NCBI GenBank assembly: GCA_021793945.1
Contig: JAJYRT010000098.1
Coordinates: 1 to 6,619, forward strand
Direction: 5' to 3'
DNA from: Thermoplasmata archaeon
GTDB taxonomy: Archaea > Thermoplasmatota > Thermoplasmata > Thermoplasmatales > Thermoplasmataceae
Length of the DNA: 6,619 bases
Part shown: in pieces, positions 1-6,619 of the stretch
Layout: each line of letters opens with the position of its first letter
Position numbering within the stretch: the first letter of the stretch is position 1
Translations under genes and position numbers: made by a program
Notes under the pieces: generated by a model
Seen by the model: the letters and a program-made list of their open reading frames with translations, nothing else
The model's database searches: none
Told to the model about the DNA's origin: nothing

Positions 1-36
1 ACCGGGAGGTCACCGGTTCAAATCCGGTCGGCCCCA
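1..36 (+). tRNA. 3' part of a host tRNA gene (integration target)
   Basis: This is the 3' half of a tRNA cut by the window edge, starting in the anticodon loop. Bases 2-6 (ccggg) fit the 3' strand of the anticodon stem and 7-11 (aggtc) a standard 5-base variable loop. Bases 12-16 and 24-28 (accgg/ccggt) form a perfect 5-bp T stem around the loop ttcaaat. Bases 29-35 (cggcccc) are the 3' acceptor strand, with discriminator A36. CCA is not encoded. The anticodon lies outside the window, so the amino acid cannot be given; the missing 5' acceptor strand should be GGGGCCG. The last 17 bases recur at 6493-6509, which marks this tRNA as the attachment site of the element. Confidence 0.88.
20..36. 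other. att core at the tRNA 3' end (host junction)
   Basis: This is the part of the direct repeat that lies in the tRNA: T loop end, T-stem 3' strand, acceptor 3' strand and discriminator. Integrases of archaeal elements commonly recombine at tRNA 3' ends and restore the tRNA by supplying an identical 3' end. The core is the maximal left edge of identity (base 19 is C here, T at 6492). The exact crossover within it cannot be seen. Confidence 0.7.
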
Positions 37-75
37 CTCAGTTCTAATCCTTCCTTCCTGCACTTCTAAAACTTC

Positions 76-82
76 TATTTTT
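76..82 (+). terminator. Possible T-tract terminator of the tRNA gene
   Basis: The + strand reads tattttt about 40 bases after the tRNA discriminator, with further pyrimidine-rich sequence downstream. Archaeal RNA polymerase can terminate at T-rich tracts without a hairpin. The tract lies in element DNA just beyond the integrase stop codon, so the element may supply the terminator of the interrupted tRNA. There is no other support. Confidence 0.25.
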
Positions 83-86
83 CCTT

Positions 87-746
87 TCATATGGCTATTG
101 CCTCCTCATATTCGAAAAAATCATGTTGCTGAACTCCTGTGTATAAATCATATATTTCACCCTGTACGTCTGAACTCAACATATGCGTGTACCTCTGAGT
201 GCTCTTTATGGAACCATGACCAAGATGGATCTGTACCTTTCTCATGTCCACGCCCATTTTAAGCAATCTTGTAGCACAGTAGTGCCTCATGGCATGCGGA
301 TGCAGTTGTGCCACTCCAGCAGCAATACCTGCTTCTTTGACCAGTTTTCTGATCACTGCGGGCTTTAATCTTCCGTATTCCCCGGTCCAAAGTGCCTTTG
401 TATCTGTGTTTTCCCTGAATTCTTTAACATATCTGTCTATCATTTCCAACGTGGAGGGAGATAATGCCACAAATCTGTCCTTTTCTCCCTTTGAAGACCG
501 AATGAAGTATCCCTTTTCCCTTCTTTCATCCAAATTCATTTTAAGCAACTCAGATACCCTCATTCCACCTTCAGCAAGGACTCTGATAATCAATGCAGTC
601 TTAAACCACTTCCTCTGATGAGCTGGTTCCCTAAGATAGTCTCTTAAACTCTCTTTGAAAACTATAATATTTGAATCAAAAGGATTTGTCAAGTGAAAAA
701 TACAGACATTATGGTGATTGGTGTCGAGTTTCTTTAGCAGACTCAT
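87..746 (-). CDS. att-proximal tyrosine recombinase (Xer-like integrase, 219 aa)
   Basis: This is a site-specific tyrosine recombinase, very likely the enzyme acting at the adjacent att site. All six family residues are visible: R63 (GGMRVSELL), K86 (SSKGEKD), H151 and R154 (HAMRH), H177 (LGHGS) and nucleophile Y186 (TQRYTHM). The fold matches the XerA/XerC/XerD catalytic domain, starting near residue 31. Relatives are usually about 280-300 residues, so the N-terminal core-binding domain is essentially missing; the frame upstream has only 11 more codons before TAA, with no ATG. ATG 744-746 lies 23 bases after the HEPN gene stop and has no ribosome binding site. A TATA-like tttata at 779-784 could give a short leader. 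The stop TGA overlaps the ATG of the next ORF. The gene converges on the tRNA, so its read-through is antisense to it. Confidence 0.9.
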   Translation of the reverse strand: MSLLKKLDTNHHNVCIFHLTNPFDSNIIVFKESLRDYLREPAHQRKWFKTALIIRVLAEGGMRVSELLKMNLDERREKGYFIRSSKGEKDRFVALSPSTLEMIDRYVKEFRENTDTKALWTGEYGRLKPAVIRKLVKEAGIAAGVAQLHPHAMRHYCATRLLKMGVDMRKVQIHLGHGSIKSTQRYTHMLSSDVQGEIYDLYTGVQQHDFFEYEEAIAI

Positions 747-769
747 TACAAAAGACGCTTCAATTAAAC

Positions 770-1726
770 TTATCCTGGTTTATACATTATGTCGCAGGCT
801 CTCAAAGTCTTCTCTGCGTCTTTCAAAATTTTCCCTCTCTCCATTAGATAATAACCGAGCCTTTGTGCCACCGCATATAACTTAGGATAGTATTGAATAA
901 TTTCTCGGGATTCTTTAGAATTTATTGAAGAATGAACTAAGTTGTTCCTCAATTCTTGAAGATGTTTTAATTCATTATTTGAAAAATCACTTCCAATCTT
1001 TTTCAATGGAACTGAGAGTTTGTCAACACTTGAAAGCATTATACTTTTCCCTTCAGTTAGCCTTTTTACTTTTGCTTCTGGAAGGTATTTCCTGAAGGCC
1101 TCAACATCGCCTCCCTCATTTATAGCTTCCTTAAATTGTATGTCTGCAGCCGTTTCTATTGCTTTCCATAATGATAAAAAACTGTGTTCGTTTTCATAAG
1201 AAGCAAGCGAAAATCCCATGAGTGAAATAAATCTGTCAATTTCGCTACCCACAGTCACCTTATTTAGCAAGGAATCAACTGTAGAATATGATAATCTTAA
1301 CGAGTTTCGCAGTTTATTCTCAGCTTCTCTCCTGTGCTCCGGGAAAACCATATTTGGGTTCAAATAGGATTTGCCCTCCATTGTCTGCGGCATCATAAAA
1401 TGGCTACTTGCCATGATATAATTCATTGTAAAGGAGTGCCCAGAAACAAAAGCCAAGTAATTCCTTATCCTCTTTAATTCTTCAATAATTTTGAACATCA
1501 AATCACCCAAGTCTGGTTCTGAGAAAGTTCTTCTAAAACCGTGTTGTGGAAACTTGATAACTGTATATTTTCCTCCACTTCTTTCGCCGATTGTCATCGG
1601 TCCAAAAAATGTCCTCGTTATCAGAATGCCTTCTCCTTTCACCATCTCATCTGGCGTTTTTAGATTTGGATCATGTTGAAGAAGTTCCAGTTCCTTTTGC
1701 AATTCTAAAGTGTATTCATTAGTCAT
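770..1726 (-). CDS. HEPN-domain protein, Apea-like (318 aa), candidate RNase/defence factor
   Basis: The C-terminal half looks like a HEPN domain: an F-L-S-L-W-K-A-I-E helix at 183-191, and L-Q-E-L-R-N-N-L-V-H at 256-265, giving R260-x4-H265, the RX4-6H motif of HEPN ribonucleases. The pairing of F-x-x-L-W-x-A-x-E with R-N-x-L-V-H is typical of Apea-like HEPN proteins of defence and abortive-infection systems. The first 160 residues include a hydrophobic segment (about 74-105) and no domain I recognise. ATG 1724-1726 has gggag five bases upstream (1732-1736). The gene lies 93 bases after the second recombinase and 23 bases before the integrase, so it is element cargo or a recombination partner. 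No antitoxin-like nucleotidyltransferase lies beside it. The HEPN assignment is fairly secure; nuclease activity and a defence role are inferred. Confidence 0.72.
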   Translation of the reverse strand: MTNEYTLELQKELELLQHDPNLKTPDEMVKGEGILITRTFFGPMTIGERSGGKYTVIKFPQHGFRRTFSEPDLGDLMFKIIEELKRIRNYLAFVSGHSFTMNYIMASSHFMMPQTMEGKSYLNPNMVFPEHRREAENKLRNSLRLSYSTVDSLLNKVTVGSEIDRFISLMGFSLASYENEHSFLSLWKAIETAADIQFKEAINEGGDVEAFRKYLPEAKVKRLTEGKSIMLSSVDKLSVPLKKIGSDFSNNELKHLQELRNNLVHSSINSKESREIIQYYPKLYAVAQRLGYYLMERGKILKDAEKTLRACDIMYKPG

Positions 1727-1794
1727 TTATTCTCCCACTTGAGACCTGTTGTTCCACCATTGAATATGGCCTTGTTGGATAGTGACTGTATACC

Positions 1795-1801
1795 ATTTAT
1801 A
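1795..1801 (-). promoter_or_regulatory. Possible TATA box for the HEPN-integrase unit
   Basis: The minus strand reads tataaat here, in the 93-base gap between the second recombinase stop (1820) and the HEPN start (1726). A start about 25 bases downstream would leave a roughly 45-base leader ending in the gggag site. Read-through from the recombinase gene is equally possible. Confidence 0.35.
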
Positions 1802-1819
1802 CATAGTCATCGTATGAAA

Positions 1820-2380
1820 TCATATCCACCCCTCAATCCATTTTCTCATTTCTTTGCGATCATATTCTTCAAATGGGATATTAACGTAATGCTCGTACTG
1901 TGTTACGGTAGAGTGTCCTTGACTCAATGCAATCTGCAGAGCCTTATCCGGATAATAGAACACTAACCATGATTCCCAAGTTTTTCGGAAAGTTTTGTTG
2001 TTAACTGGTGGTCCTTCAAGGATCCTTTTTGACAACCTTCTCATCTTCATATCAAATGCAGGAAGTTCAGGCAAAGGATGCGGAGCCTGGAATAGATCAG
2101 GAATGAGGGTCTTGCCGATATCACTTAACCTTATGGCCCTCTCTTTCTGCTTTGCCTTAACTTTCATCATAGATCCACGAGGAAGATAAACGAATCTTCC
2201 ATCCAACCAGTCAGGATTCTCTCTGAATCTCTGCAATTCAGCATACCTCATTCCAGTAACCAGGAGAGAAGTGCAGATTCTTTTCATGTTGATATCCAGT
2301 TTATCCCTCAGTGTCTCCCATTCAGATGGCCTTAGGATTCTGACTTCAAACTTTTCTGAAGATCTTACGATGGCTCTCAA
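1820..2380 (-). CDS. Second tyrosine recombinase, archaeal type (at least 186 aa; N-terminus uncertain)
   Basis: This is a phage-type integrase of the archaeal plasmid/virus kind, distinct from the gene at 87-746. Counting from TTG 2378-2380: R45 (TGMRYAEL), a lysine-rich beta-hairpin (73-79), K129-x-x-R132 (KTFR; Lys replaces the box-II His, a substitution reported in some archaeal integrases), H156 (QGHS) and Y165 in EHYVNIPF. Y165 is nine residues after H156, the same spacing as in the first recombinase, so it is the likelier nucleophile than Y162. A core-binding domain is absent. The TTG has no ribosome binding site and is probably not the real start: the frame stays open upstream, and a leaderless promoter points to ATG 2439-2441 in the other frame, one base out of phase. 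The protein would have about 206 residues if the frames join. A second recombinase suggests fusion of two elements or a separate excision or dimer-resolution job. Confidence 0.82.
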   Translation of the reverse strand: MRAIVRSSEKFEVRILRPSEWETLRDKLDINMKRICTSLLVTGMRYAELQRFRENPDWLDGRFVYLPRGSMMKVKAKQKERAIRLSDIGKTLIPDLFQAPHPLPELPAFDMKMRRLSKRILEGPPVNNKTFRKTWESWLVFYYPDKALQIALSQGHSTVTQYEHYVNIPFEEYDRKEMRKWIEGWI

Positions 2381-2399
2381 AATGGCTGTTAAGTTTATG

Positions 2400-2441
2400 T
2401 CAAGACTTAATGGTTTTTCTATCCTCCTTATATATTGACAT
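2400..2441 (-). pseudogene. Out-of-frame 5' end of the second recombinase gene (or a 13-codon leader ORF)
   Basis: ATG 2439-2441 starts MSIYKEDRKTIKS and stops at TGA 2400-2402. It sits where a leaderless start is expected, about 23 bases after the TATA box at 2461-2468. Removing one A from the A5 run within the aagGAGGatagaaaaacc segment puts this start in frame with the recombinase, giving MSIYKEDRKPLSLDINLTAI followed by the body. The options are a real inactivating frameshift, a sequencing error in the homopolymer, or programmed +1 frameshifting. Confidence 0.5.
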
Positions 2442-2460
2442 TTGAAAATCAGATTGTATG

Positions 2461-2468
2461 TATATAAA
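2461..2468 (-). promoter_or_regulatory. TATA box of the second recombinase gene
   Basis: The minus strand reads tttatata, centred about 23-24 bases before ATG 2441, close to the usual archaeal TATA-to-start distance for a leaderless message. The rest of the 2381-2566 gap shows no other gene; a ttattttt stretch at about 2539-2546 (minus strand), just past the membrane gene stop, could terminate that transcript. Confidence 0.55.
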
Positions 2469-2566
2469 GGGCGTTAAGTTTTACCCTAAAAGTTAACTTT
2501 GATACTTTTGATGTTAGAGCATCTCATAACCGACTCAAAAATAAGGTTAGGTGTTATGGAGGAAAT

Positions 2567-2902
2567 TTATCTCGAACTCATGTCATTTGTTCTATTGAAC
2601 TTATAATAAAGAACGAGATGGAACAGTATGCCTATTACTATTGATAAGAGTGGGATTAACCCGTAAAAGACGATAAACAATAAGAGTGAGTACGAAAAAA
2701 ATGTAACTTGCTCTAAATAAAAAAATACGAGTTCTCCAAGGGAGGAAATTGAGAGGAAAACACCAATAAGAAATTTAAGGTTTCCTCTTTTTTCTGCTTT
2801 AACCTTAAATGTCCCATGAACGAGTGCATCGGCAGTTAAACCCAGTCCAATTATAAGGAATGGAATGAAGTAATACCATATCTGTTGAACATACGGAGAC
2901 AT
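2567..2902 (-). CDS. Small polytopic membrane protein (111 aa), candidate immunity partner
   Basis: I do not recognise a family. Hydrophobic segments lie at about residues 8-28, 43-63 and 69-99. The last is long enough for two passes, so 3-4 membrane helices are expected. Basic residues fall in the loop at 33-43 (KVKAEKRGNLK) and the tail (YYKFNRTND). ATG 2900-2902 has no ribosome binding site, but a TATA-like tttaaata lies about 27 bases upstream, which fits a leaderless start. The gene directly follows the secreted-protein gene on the same strand; its start is 25 bases past that stop, with a perfect palindrome between. A small multi-pass protein behind a secreted protein with a hydrophobic hairpin is the layout of many bacteriocin/immunity pairs. 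That role is inferred from position and topology only. Confidence 0.72.
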   Translation of the reverse strand: MSPYVQQIWYYFIPFLIIGLGLTADALVHGTFKVKAEKRGNLKFLIGVFLSISSLGELVFFYLEQVTFFSYSLLLFIVFYGLIPLLSIVIGILFHLVLYYKFNRTNDMSSR

Positions 2903-2918
2903 ATTTATCTAAAAATAA

Positions 2919-2941
2919 ATGCCGTATTTAAAATACGGCAT
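2919..2941. repeat. Perfect 11-bp palindrome at the end of the secreted-protein gene
   Basis: Arms atgccgtattt (2919-2929) and aaatacggcat (2931-2941) flank one base. The palindrome contains the stop codon of the secreted-protein gene (2928-2930) and the TATA-like box of the membrane gene. Minus-strand transcripts continue into tttattttt, so the hairpin could act as a terminator or end stabiliser. As DNA it could equally be an operator for a dimeric regulator. Confidence 0.7.
2926..2933 (-). promoter_or_regulatory. TATA-like box of the membrane-protein gene
   Basis: The minus strand reads tttaaata, centred 27-28 bases before ATG 2902, the expected spacing for a leaderless archaeal message. 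It lies inside the 11-bp palindrome, so hairpin, operator and promoter functions may compete there. Confidence 0.45.
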
Positions 2942-3938
2942 CATATAATCCAACCCAGTTGGGTTCTGGATAACTTACAAAATTGTTCTGACCATAGACA
3001 TTGGCAAAATTGTTCCAGGAGTTCAAGAAATCTGTCTGCGCGGTTGAGGATGGCCAAGGTGCAGCGTTGAAGACCGGTATCATATTTCCATTCGCCATAT
3101 GACCATAGATATTAAACTGTGAAATTGTGTTATAAAAGTAAAAACTGTAGCCATAAATCAACTGGAAATATGGTGGGTTTAAATTCATCGTACTTGAAAA
3201 GGCAGAGTAAAGATTGTTTTCCGCATTGTAAAAGTCATAACCCAAAGCAGCAACCAAAGCTGTGCCTAGCACAGGAAGTATCACAGCAGCCGCTCCATCA
3301 GTACCCCAAGCGGCAATGAGAAATTCGAGTCCAAGTAAAGTTCCATCAATTAATCCGATACCGCTAAGATGGCTGCTTATAAATCCATAATATGAATAAG
3401 CGTTAGCTTCGTTTGTAAATTTCAGATTCGTATAGTACACGGTGCCTATAGTTTCAGTCCAGAATAGAATTGTAGTTTTGATGGGGAACTCATTTACCAT
3501 GACCAGTGGATCTTGTGACTGGTTTGTCAGATTGGAGATGCTTTGAGTTTTCTCTAAATTATTGTAGTTGTCTTGCATTTCGATTCTTGTTATGTTGTTC
3601 ATGACTAGTTGGGAACTAGGAACAGAATTCTGAAACTCTGCAAAGTAGTCTCTTGCACTACTTTCATTCAATTTGCGGATCTGTTTAATCGGAAGCTTCA
3701 TTTCCTGGTGCAACCAGGTCAAGAACATTTGGTTAAGTTTCATCTCAAGCGATTTTAGATTAGTGCCAAGGTTTGAATGTTCAAAGGGCGTAGACGAAAT
3801 TTCCGCAATTGAACTTGTTATTCTGCTATCAGTGCCATTAGTTTGGGTTTTAATATGAGTTGACCCGTCAGCGAGGCTTGGTAAAACCATTACAAACGCC
3901 GCAATTATTGAAACAACTATTATAATTTTCCTATTCAT
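2928..3938 (-). CDS. Secreted protein with signal peptide and hydrophobic hairpin (336 aa), function unknown
   Basis: ATG 3936-3938 is chosen over an upstream GTG (3983) because it has a TATA box 27 bases ahead and opens directly with a signal peptide: MNRK, a hydrophobic core, then PSLA before DGS, a likely cleavage site. The mature part has no cysteine. Five Asn-X-Ser/Thr sequons occur in the N-terminal third (NGT, NES, NIT, NLT, NQS), which fits an exported, possibly glycosylated protein. About 45 residues of Gly/Ala/Leu-rich sequence (near 190-235 of the mature frame count, around GTLLGLEFLIAAW and ILPVLGTALVAALG) could form a membrane-inserting hairpin. The C-terminal third is rich in Tyr, Phe and Asn. 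It is followed by a small membrane protein. A pore-forming archaeocin, a viral surface/fusion protein or a cell-surface protein are all possible; I recognise no family. Confidence 0.8.
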   Translation of the reverse strand: MNRKIIIVVSIIAAFVMVLPSLADGSTHIKTQTNGTDSRITSSIAEISSTPFEHSNLGTNLKSLEMKLNQMFLTWLHQEMKLPIKQIRKLNESSARDYFAEFQNSVPSSQLVMNNITRIEMQDNYNNLEKTQSISNLTNQSQDPLVMVNEFPIKTTILFWTETIGTVYYTNLKFTNEANAYSYYGFISSHLSGIGLIDGTLLGLEFLIAAWGTDGAAAVILPVLGTALVAALGYDFYNAENNLYSAFSSTMNLNPPYFQLIYGYSFYFYNTISQFNIYGHMANGNMIPVFNAAPWPSSTAQTDFLNSWNNFANVYGQNNFVSYPEPNWVGLYDAVF

Positions 3939-3959
3939 GAAGTTAAATATAACGCATAT

Positions 3960-3969
3960 TTTAATTAAA
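3960..3969 (-). promoter_or_regulatory. TATA box of the secreted-protein gene
   Basis: The sequence tttaattaaa is centred 27 bases before ATG 3938 with no ribosome binding site between, the pattern of a leaderless archaeal promoter. It supports the ATG at 3938 over the upstream GTG at 3983. Confidence 0.6.
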
Positions 3970-4303
3970 TCTATTGTAGCCACTGACCCTAAATCAACTT
4001 GCCAATTTTGAGTCCGATTTATCTCAGAAATTAGATGTATACCGGATTATTTTATTTAAATCATTGACTTGTTGAGTATCAAACCCCTTTATTTTTTCTT
4101 GAGGGTTATCTATATTTGCGCCGGTCGTTATTTTTCTTCAATAATAGTGAATAGAGGACTCAGAAATTACAGATTGGAAAAGTGAATCTGTTTAAAATAT
4201 CAAAAAAAAATATTTCATCATAGATTTTATAATCCTATTAACAAGGTTGCAAATGTTATGCGAAAACCGATGATTCTACCTTCCTTCGGGAAATATGTCA
4301 TAA
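3970..4303. other. Intergenic region, 334 bases, AT-rich
   Basis: I see no convincing gene on either strand. The region contains an 11-bp direct repeat ctcagaaatta at 4023-4033 and 4159-4169, a run of nine T on the minus strand (4202-4210), and a weak aaccc/gggtt inverted pair near 4080-4107. As the longest gene-free stretch in an element with no recognisable replication protein, it is the default place to look for an origin, but no iteron array or strong dyad shows one. Confidence 0.5.
4202..4210 (-). terminator. T9 tract, likely terminator of the regulator operon
   Basis: Nine consecutive T on the minus strand, followed after gata by more T, lie downstream of the zinc-ribbon gene and the small ORF. 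Oligo-T on the non-template strand is the main archaeal termination signal. No strong hairpin precedes it. Confidence 0.4.
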
Positions 4304-4378
4304 TCACGATTTAAGTTTCTTATTTAACTCTACAGTGATATCTGTTTTTCTTTTCCATTTAGCATACTTGTCGGCCAT
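4304..4378 (-). CDS. Candidate small basic protein (24 aa; up to 40 codons open)
   Basis: From ATG 4376-4378 the frame reads MADKYAKWKRKTDITVELNK plus KLKS, then TGA 4304-4306. The same frame is open back to 4426 (EIKERILEKFVRFKYY before the Met) with protein-like composition, which suggests either a longer protein with an unusual start or a decayed gene fragment. A purine-rich aaggag at 4416-4421 would serve ATT 4410-4412 in this frame, or TTG in another frame, poorly. The product is strongly basic, compatible with nucleic-acid binding. It lies 60-110 bases after the zinc-ribbon stop and before the T9 tract. Without homologues it remains a candidate. Confidence 0.33.
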   Translation of the reverse strand: MADKYAKWKRKTDITVELNKKLKS

Positions 4379-4430
4379 ATAGTATTTAAATCGGACAAAT
4401 TTCTCAAGAATTCTCTCCTTAATTTCTTAA

Positions 4431-4441
4431 CTATATAATAT
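4431..4441. promoter_or_regulatory. TATA-like element in a nearly symmetric AT tract
   Basis: The tract ctatataatat can be read as a TATA box on either strand. On the minus strand it lies 20-30 bases ahead of the small-ORF region. On the + strand it precedes a strong aaaggagg (4462-4469) that leads only to TTG plus 11 codons (4476-4511, stop TGA). No clear gene decides the direction. Confidence 0.3.
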
Positions 4442-4454
4442 ATGAAAAGTTAGA

Positions 4455-4527
4455 CACCACCAAAGGAGGACAAAATTGTTTAGATATTATGTTAAATACA
4501 GGAAAACGTGAAGTGTCCTCCATGGTG
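4455..4527. repeat. Interrupted inverted repeat over the 3' end of the zinc-ribbon gene
   Basis: The perfect 8-bp arms ggaggaca (4465-4472) and tgtcctcc (4514-4521) are flanked by outer arms cacca (4455-4459) and tggtg (4523-4527). The result is a two-part stem with a 41-base loop. It spans the zinc-ribbon stop codon (4487-4489). In minus-strand RNA it could protect the 3' end. In + strand RNA it would sequester the aaaggagg motif. Confidence 0.5.
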
Positions 4528-4936
4528 CCATCTTCTGTCCTTGGGGACATTTACAGGCTGTTACATTCGAATCATCAGCATCTGGGACTCTGTTCTTCTC
4601 AGTTTCTACTTTCTGCTCACAATTCGGGCATGTTGTACGCTTTGAAGAGCCTGTGAATCTCCATATATAACTGCAATGATTGCATTTGACATCATATCCT
4701 GAAGACCGACTCTCCTTTTCCAGAATGTACACTCTGGTTTCACAGTTAGGACACCGGGCAACTCGCAGGAAACCTGTATAGCCCCAGAAATAACCACATT
4801 CACCGCATGTCAATGGGATTCCATCGCTTGAATCCCCGGATCTTCCTGTCAACTTTTCTTCAAATACCTGAATAAATTCTAAATGAGATGGATTAGTGAT
4901 ATCTATCCAATTCTCATAGAATGAAAAGAGAGACAT
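4487..4936 (-). CDS. Double zinc-ribbon protein (149 aa)
   Basis: Two similar Cys4 modules follow one another. The first has C-G-E-C-G-Y-F-W-G-Y-T-G followed by C-P-N-C; the second has C-N-H-C-S-Y-I-W-R-F-T-G followed by C-P-N-C. In both, CxxC is followed by x2-3-W-x-[FY]-T-G and then CPNC, so each probably binds one zinc and the pair arose by internal duplication. A further C-x-C follows near the C-terminus. The spacing resembles zinc ribbons in small archaeal nucleic-acid-binding or transcription-related proteins; the partner is unknown. ATG 4934-4936 and TTG 4937-4939 both fit: the gaggggatt near the 3' end of the upstream gene lies 9 or 6 bases away. The gene starts within five bases of the upstream stop, so the two are co-translated and probably act together. 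Confidence 0.8.
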   Translation of the reverse strand: MSLFSFYENWIDITNPSHLEFIQVFEEKLTGRSGDSSDGIPLTCGECGYFWGYTGFLRVARCPNCETRVYILEKESRSSGYDVKCNHCSYIWRFTGSSKRTTCPNCEQKVETEKNRVPDADDSNVTACKCPQGQKMAPWRTLHVFLYLT

Positions 4937-4940
4937 CAAT

Positions 4941-5765
4941 TCAATCCCCTCCCATGTATGGTTTCTCTATCCTGGTCTTAGCTTCATCTACAGTTATCTC
5001 CGGAGGATTCTGGTAGAACGGCATCATTTTCTGTTTGGTTTCCCTTTTAACATTCTCAGAAAGGATCCTTGGAGAGAACTGTTTGAAGAAATCCGTTGGG
5101 GCTTCAGAGATATTCTGATTATTCAGGAATTCCTTTTGGAACTCCTCGTAATCAAATCTTATGAAATACCTTTCAATAAGATCACTTTCTGATGGTATAA
5201 GCCATGTTTCAGGTTCGCTTGGGATTAACAGATTGTTCTTTCCAATGTGCCTTCTAAGTATTCTAAATGTGATGTTTGATGCCCTGTTTGTTAACCTGAA
5301 TCCCTGAGGTGTCTCTTCTATCTCATAGGCATGGATTCTTTTCTCAGCCATAAACTGTTTAACAATTGGAATCGGATCAATGGGTTCTCTTTTCAGTGCT
5401 CTAAAAATCACTGATTGAACTAAAGACCTGAGATACCAGGCATGACAATCTGTTTCCAGGCTGATATCTAACCGGATCCTTGCCTTATCTTCCACTCTGG
5501 CCTTAACGGATTTCCATTCGCTTTCAAGGATTGACAGTTTTTGCCTTGTTTCAAAGATGTCATTGTCCAATTGCCGTAGCCTTGCTTCATCTGATGTTTG
5601 GCTTTTGAGGGCCCAGAGAGATCTATTGACATATCCAGAAACGTTGAAGTGTGGTCCAAGCTCATCTATGAAGTTCTCCACTTCAGAGTCAATTGTAATC
5701 TGGAGCCTTCCCTTTCTTTTCATTCCTTCAGGCGGTCTTCCTGGTTTTGAATTTTTCTTGCTCAT
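4941..5765 (-). CDS. Ribbon-helix-helix DNA-binding protein with coiled coil (274 aa)
   Basis: Residues 1-20 are basic with a G-R-P-P AT-hook-like motif. Residues 20-54 match a ribbon-helix-helix domain: strand GRLQITID, helix SEVENFIDELG, turn, helix NVSGYVNRSLWALK. Residues 58-95 are a heptad-like, charged coiled coil. The remaining 180 residues are mixed alpha/beta with no domain I recognise. Short RHH repressors have about 50-100 residues, so this is a long multidomain protein, possibly the master regulator, copy-number or partition factor of the element. ATG 5763-5765 has GGAGGT (5775-5780) nine bases upstream and overlaps the previous ORF stop as ATGA. The last codons carry the ribosome binding site of the zinc-ribbon gene. 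An autoregulatory role is inferred from the RHH fold. Confidence 0.83.
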   Translation of the reverse strand: MSKKNSKPGRPPEGMKRKGRLQITIDSEVENFIDELGPHFNVSGYVNRSLWALKSQTSDEARLRQLDNDIFETRQKLSILESEWKSVKARVEDKARIRLDISLETDCHAWYLRSLVQSVIFRALKREPIDPIPIVKQFMAEKRIHAYEIEETPQGFRLTNRASNITFRILRRHIGKNNLLIPSEPETWLIPSESDLIERYFIRFDYEEFQKEFLNNQNISEAPTDFFKQFSPRILSENVKRETKQKMMPFYQNPPEITVDEAKTRIEKPYMGGD

Positions 5766-6025
5766 ATCTGGGAGACCTCCATTTCCTTTCTAGCAATAGA
5801 GAAGAGAGAAGAAAGAAAATAAAATGAATAATTAAATAAGTACGATAAGTAGCTATTTAATTGTCTGAAAAGTACTGTAATACTGAATTTCTGGACGTGC
5901 TCCACTTGCAATTTAGTGTGTATAGAATTCGATAGAATAAACTCTGACTGGTTTTCCAAGCAATTCATATTTTCTGGAATTTTAAACACATCAAATTCAG
6001 GAACTTTGTTGGGAAGGAAAATCAC
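5762..6025 (-). CDS. Small hypothetical protein (87 aa), weak
   Basis: GTG 6023-6025 overlaps the stop of the preceding ORF as GTGA and has an excellent ribosome binding site, aaaggaggt, seven bases upstream (6033-6038). The stop TGA 5762-5764 overlaps the RHH start as ATGA. Both junctions argue for a translated gene. Against it, the C-terminal half runs through promoter-like AT-rich DNA and reads as a low-complexity Phe/Tyr/Ser/Asn stretch (around YLSYLFNYSFYFLSSLFS). That stretch could be one amphipathic or membrane-seeking helix. There is no family match. The ORF may encode a short coupling peptide, or only its 5' part may matter. Confidence 0.45.
   Translation of the reverse strand: MIFLPNKVPEFDVFKIPENMNCLENQSEFILSNSIHTKLQVEHVQKFSITVLFRQLNSYLSYLFNYSFYFLSSLFSIARKEMEVSQI
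5829..5840 (-). promoter_or_regulatory. Possible internal promoter of the RHH/zinc-ribbon genes
   Basis: The minus strand reads ttatttaattat inside the 87-codon ORF, in a markedly AT-rich stretch (about 5805-5865). A start 25 bases on would give a leader of about 40 bases ending with GGAGGT. It would let the RHH gene be expressed after integration separates the operon from the integrase promoter. Confidence 0.4.
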
Positions 6026-6351
6026 TGCCTAAACCTCCTTTGATTTAGGTTCTCTTTGTGATTTCTATATTTCAACTGCCTTCTCTTGCCATAGGTTTCT
6101 CTCTGTATCCTCTGTTCTGGATCTGGGAAAAATGTTGTTTTGATATCAATAGTCAAGGAATTCATGCTTACGATATCGCAATCATCCTGGTGTCTTGATT
6201 GCCACAGAGAGAGTTGCCTTTCTGCTTCAGGTAGATCATATTCAACTATACCCATCACTTCAGAACTGTTTGCGGAAAGTGAGTATATTCTTCCAACCAG
6301 TATAATTCCTGTGATCACCTGTTGAATCCTGTTGTCCTGGGAAGAGATCAT
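6022..6351 (-). CDS. Hypothetical protein (109 aa) in the coupled operon
   Basis: I do not recognise a family. The N-terminal part (about residues 8-45) looks like beta strands (QVITGIILVGRIYSLS, VMGIVEYDL), and the C-terminal 35 residues are very basic with many Arg, Lys and Gln (GKRRQLKYRNHKENLNQ), suggesting nucleic-acid or partner binding. ATG 6349-6351 overlaps the stop of the 71-codon ORF as ATGA, with GGAGGT (6358-6363) six bases upstream. Its stop overlaps the next GTG. The start is therefore well defined, and expression is coupled to both neighbours. Confidence 0.65.
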   Translation of the reverse strand: MISSQDNRIQQVITGIILVGRIYSLSANSSEVMGIVEYDLPEAERQLSLWQSRHQDDCDIVSMNSLTIDIKTTFFPDPEQRIQRETYGKRRQLKYRNHKENLNQRRFRQ

Positions 6352-6563
6352 TCAAGAACCTCCATTAGTTCAGCAAACGTCTCTATTTCTGGATGAGGGT
6401 CTGCTACGGAGGAGGCAATATATGAATTGAAGCCAAGTCTAAGAAGCTGAAATTCAAGGAATGAGCAGCTCTGTAGAGACGAACCCGGGGTTAAATCCGG
6501 TCGGCCCCACTCAGTTCTAATCCTTCCTTCCTGCACTTCTAAAACTTCTATTTTTCCTTTCAT
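6348..6563 (-). CDS. Small protein (71 aa) whose gene contains the att core
   Basis: ATG 6561-6563 overlaps the stop of the downstream-copy integrase (6560-6562) as ATGA, and gaggagg lies 10 bases upstream (6574-6580). The frame runs through the tRNA-derived att core: residues about 19-24 (W-G-R-P-D-L) are the antisense reading of the tRNA 3' end. It continues to a TGA that overlaps the next ATG. The C-terminal 25 residues are acidic (VADPHPEIETFAELMEVLE). No family is recognised; a small acidic integrase-linked protein could be a recombination directionality factor or regulator, but there is no direct support. The equivalent ORF at the tRNA junction (10-90) is cut to 26 residues. In a single integrated element this gene would lose its start. 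Confidence 0.6.
   Translation of the reverse strand: MKGKIEVLEVQEGRIRTEWGRPDLTPGSSLQSCSFLEFQLLRLGFNSYIASSVADPHPEIETFAELMEVLE
6409..6420. repeat. Left arm of a 12-bp inverted repeat flanking att
   Basis: The sequence gaggaggcaata on the + strand is the exact reverse complement of tattgcctcctc at 6569-6580. The midpoint of the pair is 6494.5, at the edge of the att core. It may be an integrase or accessory arm-binding site. Confidence 0.5.
6493..6509. other. att core, attP-like copy inside a coding frame
   Basis: These 17 bases are identical to the last 17 bases of the tRNA. They lie within codons 19-24 of the 71-codon ORF on the minus strand and are flanked by element sequence on both sides. 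Confidence 0.7.
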
Positions 6564-6619
6564 ATGGCTATTGCCTCCTCATATTCGAAAAAATCATGTT
6601 CCTGAACCCCTGTGTATAA
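6560..6619 (-). CDS. 3' end of a second copy of the att-proximal integrase (partial)
   Basis: These are the last 19 codons plus stop of an integrase nearly identical to the one at 87-746; the rest lies beyond the window. Two base differences are visible: a silent G204 codon change (gga to ggg) and Q207 to E (caa to gaa). The frame is intact, so this is a functional-looking allele of a related element rather than a decayed fragment or an exact assembly duplicate. Confidence 0.82.
   Translation of the reverse strand, partial: LYTGVQEHDFFEYEEAIAI
6569..6580. repeat. Right arm of the 12-bp inverted repeat flanking att (also at 96-107)
   Basis: The sequence tattgcctcctc lies in the last codons of the integrase gene. 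Its minus-strand reading, gaggaggcaata, also supplies the ribosome binding site of the 71-codon ORF. Exactly the same 12-mer is at 96-107 in the left copy, but there the opposite arm is absent because tRNA DNA replaces it. Confidence 0.5.

What the first reader, a model, noticed from the sequence alone, without database searches (positions are those of the whole stretch)
6348..6619. The attachment site lies inside an operon, so integration would cut a coding transcription unit
Seen: the integrase stop overlaps the 71-codon ORF start (ATGA), a gaggagg site precedes it, the tRNA-derived core occupies codons 19-24, and four more genes follow with 4-base overlaps or near-contact (6351, 6025, 5765, 4939). 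Seen: at the host junction the same ORF ends after 26 codons in the tRNA. Inference: the circular or tandem form makes an integrase-to-regulator message, and integration severs it, silencing the first downstream gene(s) and leaving the RHH gene to its internal promoter. This would make the recombination state itself a genetic switch.
Basis: partly seen in the sequence, partly recalled or inferred. Interest (0 to 1): 0.78.

Follow-up and report, generated by a model that had tools for sequence, protein, structure and literature searches.

The report
Integration site inside a conserved gene
A small mobile element of Thermoplasma-like archaea carries its chromosome-insertion site inside a conserved small gene that follows its integrase gene, so inserting into the chromosome cuts that gene and leaving would restore it, much like a switch recently demonstrated in a salt-loving archaeal virus.

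Summary
The 71-codon ORF (6348-6563, minus) overlaps the integrase stop (ATGA), follows GAGGAGG, carries the tRNA-Ile-derived core in codons 19-24 and overlaps the next gene by 4 bases. Genome G001 holds the same element (100% over 6509 bases) integrated at tRNA-Ile(GAT). There the ORF is cut: SD, ATG and the 18-codon leader stay at the tRNA, the rest lies at the other junction.

The downstream part is a real protein: dN/dS 0.16 and 0.21 in two pairs (third saturated), 39 database proteins by profile. Three full-length 71-residue alleles spanning the intact site exist elsewhere. The frame also crosses the core in relatives targeting tRNA-Trp. In tRNA-Pro relatives the integrase C-terminus crosses the core and the small gene starts beyond it, so a cut small gene is probably derived; the site between integrase and small gene is the shared feature.

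The switch is supported by anatomy, not by RNA. It has a precedent: haloarchaeal virus SNJ2 (2026) makes an attP-spanning ORF and an integrase-containing operon only after excision, shown experimentally. This is an apparently independent Thermoplasmata version, with no detectable relatives in the phage or plasmid records searched: a new variant of a known kind.

The parts
1..36 (+). 3' part of the host tRNA-Ile(GAT) gene, ending in attL core GGTTCAAATCCGGTCGGCCCCA (15-36)
   Evidence: Full tRNA-Ile(GAT) called by ARAGORN in G001, L023:783-858; window 1-6509 is 100% identical to L023:822-7330
10..90 (-). Integrated-state remnant of the ORF: ATG and 18-codon leader, core, then stop after 26 codons inside the tRNA antisense
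   Evidence: Translation; coordinates checked
87..746 (-). Tyrosine integrase, catalytic part only (219 aa); the N-terminal part present in the 309-aa relative L024 is missing
   Evidence: PF00589 E 3.8e-29; DNA homology to L024 stops at 659; both sequences printed
6560..6619 (-). Last codons of a second integrase copy (from a second element or a circle variant)
   Evidence: 97% repeat of 15-146; body differs at 6601 and 6608
6574..6580 (-). Shine-Dalgarno GAGGAGG inside the integrase 3' end, before the 71-codon ORF
   Evidence: Of the nine lineages with an open leader, GAGGAGG is exact in 5 and one base off in 4 (L027, L102, L030, L091)
6488..6509 (.). attP/attR core GGGTTAAATCCGGTCGGCCCCA; 17 bases (6493-6509) identical to the tRNA 3' end
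   Evidence: Repeats D1/D2; homology to integrated G001 ends exactly at 6509
6348..6563 (-). 71-codon small gene spanning the core: leader (1-18), core codons (19-24), conserved C-terminal domain (about 33-71)
6022..6351 (-). 109-aa conserved gene of unknown function, overlaps the small gene by 4 bases
   Evidence: dN/dS 0.05-0.14 over ten pairs; matches in 19 of 400 genomes drawn from the class
5762..6025 (-). 87-codon ORF with conserved SD and NTG start but flat codon-position substitutions; holds a conserved DNA block (5765-5944), the likely RHH promoter/operator
4941..5765 (-).
   Evidence: no PDB fold match

Best explanation
The window holds an integrative element of Thermoplasmata whose attP core lies between the 3' end of the integrase gene and the first genes of the right-end operon. 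In the circle, or at the inner junction of a tandem array, ribosomes leaving the integrase restart at the overlapping ATG and read 18 leader codons, the tRNA-derived core and a conserved small domain, then couple into the 109-aa gene. Integration swaps the partner DNA at the core. The SD and ATG stay with the integrase at the tRNA, and the small domain is left at attR without its native start and without whatever promoter serves the integrase. The small and 109-aa proteins would then be made mainly from the unintegrated (or tandem) form, while the 274-aa regulator keeps its own promoter. I think the pair most likely serves the free form (establishment, replication or maintenance), by analogy with SNJ2. 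SHOWN: anatomy, cut state, frame conservation, purifying selection on the small domain and the 109-aa gene. INFERRED: the joint transcript, silencing on integration, the regulator's own promoter, the role of the proteins.
For: Same element as a single integrant in G001, ORF cut. Small domain under purifying selection: dN/dS 0.16 and 0.21 in two of three pairs, the third saturated; codon-position changes 11/4/18 for window vs L047. No ATG/GTG/TTG from the core until the last six codons in 3 of 4 copies (window, L047, L034); in L091 a TTG lies 10 codons past the core. In-frame host-side starts in integrated copies: none in L047 and L091, one TTG without SD in G001, one GTG and three TTG in L034. 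Three full-length 71-aa attP-type proteins with 13 member sequences, against three attL-type with 9. Leader open and in register at 9 of 11 tRNA-Ile/Trp attL copies; ATG-to-core 54 nt in 8 and 51 nt in L091, a whole-codon difference; attR frame in register in 4 of 4. Small ORF before the 109-like gene, by eye, clearly in 12 of 26 loci. G085:C4 shows integrase, core and small gene contiguous at 91.5 kb, and another integrase copy running into tRNA-Pro at 56.3 kb with a different C-terminus. Experimental precedent: SNJ2, PMC13107129.
Against: No RNA or protein data. 30 of the 39 profile relatives are 45-53 aa, and in the loci where I placed the core (L033, L035, L036, L092) the small gene starts beyond it, so cutting the ORF is not needed for the family's biology. 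In one search, 5 of 26 loci had only a weak candidate small ORF and 9 none (one at a contig end). Leaders of tRNA-Trp copies L025/L028/L030 show dN/dS 1.4-1.95, no protein constraint (integrases of L028 and L030 carry stops). Two attL leaders are closed. tRNA antisense is naturally open in this frame (recalled), so an open core alone proves little. The integrase of this copy lacks its N-terminal part, so the element may not excise unaided. The predicted tRNA-Trp attP product found no relative in the protein database.
Confidence: 0.6

Rival explanations
1. By-product: attP sits at the integrase 3' end because integrase modules are built that way; the small gene's 5' end merely drifted across the core, and integration has no regulatory effect because a host start or promoter at attR serves as well.
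For: In other lineages the small gene has its own start beyond the core; antisense tRNA is open in this frame (recalled); a host-side TTG (G001) or GTG/TTG (G006:C26) keeps the domain readable in the integrated state; tRNA-Trp leaders show no protein constraint.
Against: In L047 and L091 the integrated copy has no start before the core up to the next in-frame stop; SD, ATGA overlap and whole-codon spacing are kept across two tRNA target classes.
Confidence: 0.25
2. The small protein is an integrase partner (integration helper or directionality factor) made only from the circle, so integration shuts off its own helper and locks the element in.
For: Small gene overlapping the integrase gene, a position often taken by xis-like genes (recalled); Orf2 and Orf3 raise IntSNJ2 integration efficiency (PMC8371274 passage).
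Against: The 71-aa protein has no Pfam, PHROGs or NCBIfam match and its model no PDB fold match. One of 13 family members matched the MerR DNA-binding model (E 0.0016), too isolated to weigh either way.
Confidence: 0.15
3. The window junction never exists as a circle: it is a tandem array of two related elements (or a metagenome assembly join), and the intact ORF is made from arrays, not from excision.
For: The right-hand copy differs from the left at 6601 and 6608; G085:C4 has an integrase remnant joined to a second element at an intact core in a chromosome.
Against: Three other full-length attP-type proteins exist, though these too could come from arrays.
Confidence: 0.35

Closest known systems
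SNJ2 (haloarchaeal betapleolipovirus), excision-reconstituted integrase operon and attP-spanning orf26 (PMC13107129, NAR 2026)
   Same: attP downstream of the integrase; circularisation joins the integrase gene to right-end ORFs read in the same direction and creates an ORF that includes the attP junction.
   Different: There, co-transcription, translation of a tagged ORF26 and need of each ORF for replication were shown, and the operon ends in Rep-Arvir (DUF7845). Here no Rep-Arvir was found, the 274-aa and 109-aa proteins have no match in 50,697 phage records, hosts are Thermoplasmata, and the spanning ORF has a conserved domain that is a free-standing gene in relatives. Homology to SNJ2 itself was not tested directly.
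Integration-dependent immunity of mycobacteriophage BPs (PMC4557955)
   Same: attP lies inside a protein gene next to the integrase gene; integration changes the product.
   Different: In BPs integration removes the 3' end and leaves an active shorter repressor; here it removes the start and 5' end.
Archaeal suicidal integrases (SSV, pTN3, pT26-2; PMC8371274)
   Same: Archaeal tyrosine integrase, att site in a coding sequence cut by integration.
   Different: Those split the integrase itself; here the integrase ends before the core (tRNA-Ile/Trp lineages) or only its C-terminal tail is swapped (tRNA-Pro lineage).
Lambda sib retroregulation; ICEclc circle-specific promoter (both recalled; one search gave a search listing only)
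   Same: Recombination at att changes what lies next to int and so gene expression.
   Different: RNA stability or a promoter, not a protein gene spanning the site.

Membership tests
SNJ2-type excision-reconstituted operon | attP lies between integrase and co-oriented right-end genes | tested here: met
   in relatives
SNJ2-type excision-reconstituted operon | Circularisation creates an ORF spanning attP | tested here: met
   At sequence level only: 71-codon ORF at the attP-type junction, cut in integrated G001; three full-length relatives elsewhere
SNJ2-type excision-reconstituted operon | Integrase and right-end genes co-transcribed after excision | not testable with these tools
   No RNA data
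SNJ2-type excision-reconstituted operon | Operon encodes a Rep-Arvir (DUF7845) initiator | tested here: not met
   The longest ORF of the window is 351 aa, while RepSNJ2 has at least 469 residues; no DUF7845 among Pfam matches of 10 window proteins or of 10 proteins of the G085 relative. I did not check that this Pfam copy holds DUF7845.
BPs-type integration-dependent immunity | attP inside a repressor gene | tested here: inconclusive
   attP is inside a gene; its product has no recognisable family
BPs-type integration-dependent immunity | Integration truncates the C-terminus and leaves an active 5' part | tested here: not met
   The conserved domain is the 3' part, which loses its native start
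Suicidal (SSV/pTN3) integrases | Integration splits the integrase gene | tested here: not met
   Integrase stop at 87-89 / 6560-6562 lies before the core
Suicidal (SSV/pTN3) integrases | Phage_integr_3 domain (PF16795) | tested here: not met
   20.3 bits, below the cut-off of 27; PF00589 scores 102.1

The most novel reading that the evidence does not exclude
In a whole family of Thermoplasmata elements the tRNA-derived attachment core is a translated, protein-coding part of the junction between the integrase and a conserved small gene. Lineages differ in which protein integration edits: the small gene loses its start (tRNA-Ile, tRNA-Trp), or the integrase has its C-terminal tail swapped (tRNA-Pro). 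Each member thus reads its own recombination state, and tandem arrays create hybrid small proteins from two elements.
Probability: 0.4. Interest if true: 0.75.

Novelty: new variant of a known kind. Interest (0 to 1): 0.6.

Why it matters
SNJ2 was, in what I read, described as a mechanism of one haloarchaeal virus group. An element family in another archaeal phylum with the same logic, and no detectable shared genes among those searched, suggests that coupling gene expression to excision by placing attP inside an operon is a recurring archaeal solution. The family offers a natural experiment: the same conserved small gene exists in versions cut by integration and versions left whole, and a different protein (the integrase tail) is edited in the latter lineage.

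Tried and rejected
Rejected or null: (a) A known family for the 71-aa, 109-aa or 87-codon product: no Pfam, PHROGs or NCBIfam match at E 0.1 except a sub-threshold MreC hit for the 109-aa protein; at E 1, five Pfam families matched one member each of 13 small proteins, best MerR-DNA-bind at 0.0016. (b) Fold matches: the 274-aa model (mean pLDDT 79.6) and the 71-aa model (66.4) have no PDB match at E <= 0.001. (c) Relatives in phage, plasmid and viral collections: none for the 274-aa or 109-aa protein in phages, none for the 274-aa protein or the window DNA in plasmids; viral-contig scans with the 274-aa protein (alone and as alignment), the 71-aa protein, the 109-aa alignment and an attP DNA pattern found none. 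The integrase matched 636 phage records, all under 60% identity. (d) A relative of the predicted tRNA-Trp attP product: none. (e) Treating the 87-codon ORF as an ordinary gene: changes are flat over codon positions, and silent divergence is 0.15-0.28 against 0.41-0.69 in its two neighbours over the six pairs without L047; with L047 it is 0.59-0.64 against 0.49-0.72. Yet SD and NTG start are kept in 5 of 5, so I did not call it non-coding either. (f) Bacterial promoter consensus: uninformative for archaea. (g) Rfam: no match. (h) The tRNA-Ser loci G044 (L098) and G112 (L099): a tRNA-Ser-like core precedes the small ORF, but I could not identify an integrase at the tRNA end of L098, so they are not counted. 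(i) The genome-contig scan gave two near relatives and two distant bacterial integrases; I used the near two and dropped the others. (j) Two papers on genomic islands of acidophilic archaea (PMC12302457, PMC12350378) were searched for attP and attachment site: no occurrence.

Full report
WHAT IS THERE. The window runs from the 3' part of a tRNA-Ile gene through a 6.5 kb element whose main genes lie on the minus strand, to a second copy of the element's integrase end. The window's own assembly is not held, but genome G001 carries the same element, 100% identical over window 1-6509, as a single integrant between tRNA-Ile(GAT) and host DNA. In G001 the match ends exactly at 6509, the end of the core. 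Window 6510-6619 is therefore an element-to-element (circle or tandem) junction. It differs from the left copy at 6601 and 6608, with bases also seen in relatives, so it comes from a second, non-identical element or a circle variant, or from an assembly mixing them.

THE ORF. The 71-codon ORF begins in the integrase stop (ATGA), follows GAGGAGG, reads 18 leader codons, then the core as W-G-R-P-D-L, then a C-terminal domain, and overlaps the 109-aa gene by four bases. In integrated G001 the leader and core stay at the tRNA and stop after 26 codons; the rest lies at attR behind host DNA. Of five tRNA-Ile attL copies only this allele stops there; four run on.

IS IT A REAL GENE? A protein search found six relatives: three full-length 71-aa proteins (90, 87, 77% identity) of attP type and three of attL type. 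In the 45 codons beyond the core, dN/dS is 0.16 (window-L047) and 0.21 (L047-L034), the third pair being saturated in silent sites. AlphaFold2 gives three short helices in residues 35-70 (block pLDDT 76-85) and low confidence in residues 1-30; mean pLDDT is only 66.4. A profile search found 39 proteins, 30 of them 45-53 aa, one from Thermoplasma sp. Kam2015; only the 7986 candidates sharing most words were scored. By eye, a matching small ORF stands before the 109-like gene in 12 of 26 loci clearly (two of these identical), in 5 weakly and in 9 not at all, one of these at a contig end. The 109-like gene itself was found in 19 of 400 genomes drawn from the class, the 274-aa gene in 15 of 77 genomes of the family.

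HOW THE CORE IS READ IN RELATIVES. I looked at 11 attL copies at tRNA-Ile or tRNA-Trp. Nine have an open leader in the same frame: tRNA-Ile in G001, G006, G005, G002, G048 and tRNA-Trp in G006, G002, G005, G049. Two tRNA-Trp copies (G023, G012) do not. Both closed copies have integrases with stop codons; so do three of the open ones (G005 Ile, G002 Trp, G005 Trp), and in G002 (Ile) only the integrase end matched. ATG-to-core distance is 54 nt in eight and 51 nt in G049, a whole codon. All four attR copies examined (G001, G006:C10, G006:C26, G049) continue in the matching frame. G049:C18 has both ends in one contig; in G006 the two tRNA-Trp ends lie on different contigs and need not be one element. 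Against protein constraint on the leader: three tRNA-Trp leaders show dN/dS 1.4-1.95. The tRNA-Ile leaders show 0.18-0.27 in four pairs and 0.56 in one, on ten or fewer changes each.

A SECOND ARRANGEMENT. In tRNA-Pro relatives the integrase frame crosses the core and the small gene starts beyond it. G085:C4 (556 kb contig) shows both states: at 91.5 kb integrase, core and small gene are contiguous; at 56.3 kb another integrase copy runs into tRNA-Pro(TGG) antisense and ends differently. I read this as an integrase remnant in tandem with a 35 kb element. G002:C93 also has integrase and small gene contiguous, with a core like that of tRNA-Pro(GGG) in G003; G003:C88 is contiguous too, but I did not find its target tRNA.

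WHAT INTEGRATION TAKES AWAY. From the core on, window, L047 and L034 have no ATG/GTG/TTG until the last six codons; L091 has a TTG ten codons after the core. On the host side, L047 and L091 have no in-frame start, G001 has a TTG without SD, L034 has one GTG and three TTG. So the native SD and ATG are lost in 4 of 4, and a host-side ATG/GTG/TTG is absent in 2 of 4.

THE REST OF THE OPERON. The 109-aa gene (dN/dS 0.05-0.14) and the 274-aa gene (0.04-0.20) are ordinary coding genes. The 87-codon ORF between them is not: changes spread evenly over codon positions, and its 5765-5944 part is 85-97% identical to L033, L034 and L035, with AT-rich TATA-like stretches, though diverged in L047, whose 274-aa protein also differs. 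Its SD and NTG start are kept in 5 of 5. The likeliest reading is a promoter/operator for the 274-aa regulator inside a translated or once-translated ORF.

COMPARISON. SNJ2 (PMC13107129; read: abstract, section 24 whole, part 1 of 2 of section 29, passages of others) is the closest case: excision joins the integrase operon to right-end ORFs and creates orf26 across attP; co-transcription, translation of tagged ORF26 and need for replication were shown. BPs (PMC4557955; passages, abstract included) has attP inside its repressor gene. Suicidal archaeal integrases (PMC8371274; 12 passages) split their own gene. The element here works like SNJ2 on its anatomy but has no detectable Rep-Arvir, so I do not file it as a member of that system. 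My literature searches listed no paper that names this Thermoplasmata family in its title or abstract start; that is limited to open-licence PMC texts and those terms. Two listed papers on acidophile genomic islands contain neither 'attP' nor 'attachment site'.

VERDICT. Observation confirmed; the cut is shown, the switch is inferred with a strong published precedent. New variant of a known kind; interest 0.6.

Noticed in passing
window 87-746: The integrase keeps only the catalytic part; homology to the 309-aa relative L024 stops at 659, so this copy may depend on a related integrase in trans.
   Followed up: partly
window 1820-2380: A second tyrosine-recombinase-like ORF (phrog_1, E 4.1e-9); a similar protein (by eye) lies in the 35 kb G085 element (L111, oriented 3793-4353).
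   Followed up: no
window 770-1726: Weak, sub-threshold HEPN matches (E 0.013 and 0.032) in a 318-aa protein next to the integrase.
   Followed up: no
window 5762-6025: ORF with conserved SD and NTG start in 5 of 5 aligned copies but DNA-like evolution; possible leader peptide plus operator.
   Followed up: partly
L111 oriented 16235 and L092 (G085:C4 at 56.3 and 91.5 kb): Two integrase copies with different C-termini at attL (tRNA-Pro) and at an intact core; between them a 35 kb element with a 1567-aa PKD-repeat protein and a DUF5131 protein that also matches intein and LAGLIDADG models.
   Followed up: partly
L101 7655-8337 and L097 673-1313 (oriented): Short ORF pairs that look like antitoxin and PIN-type toxin genes (by eye, no family search) lie near the element's small gene in two genomes.
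   Followed up: no
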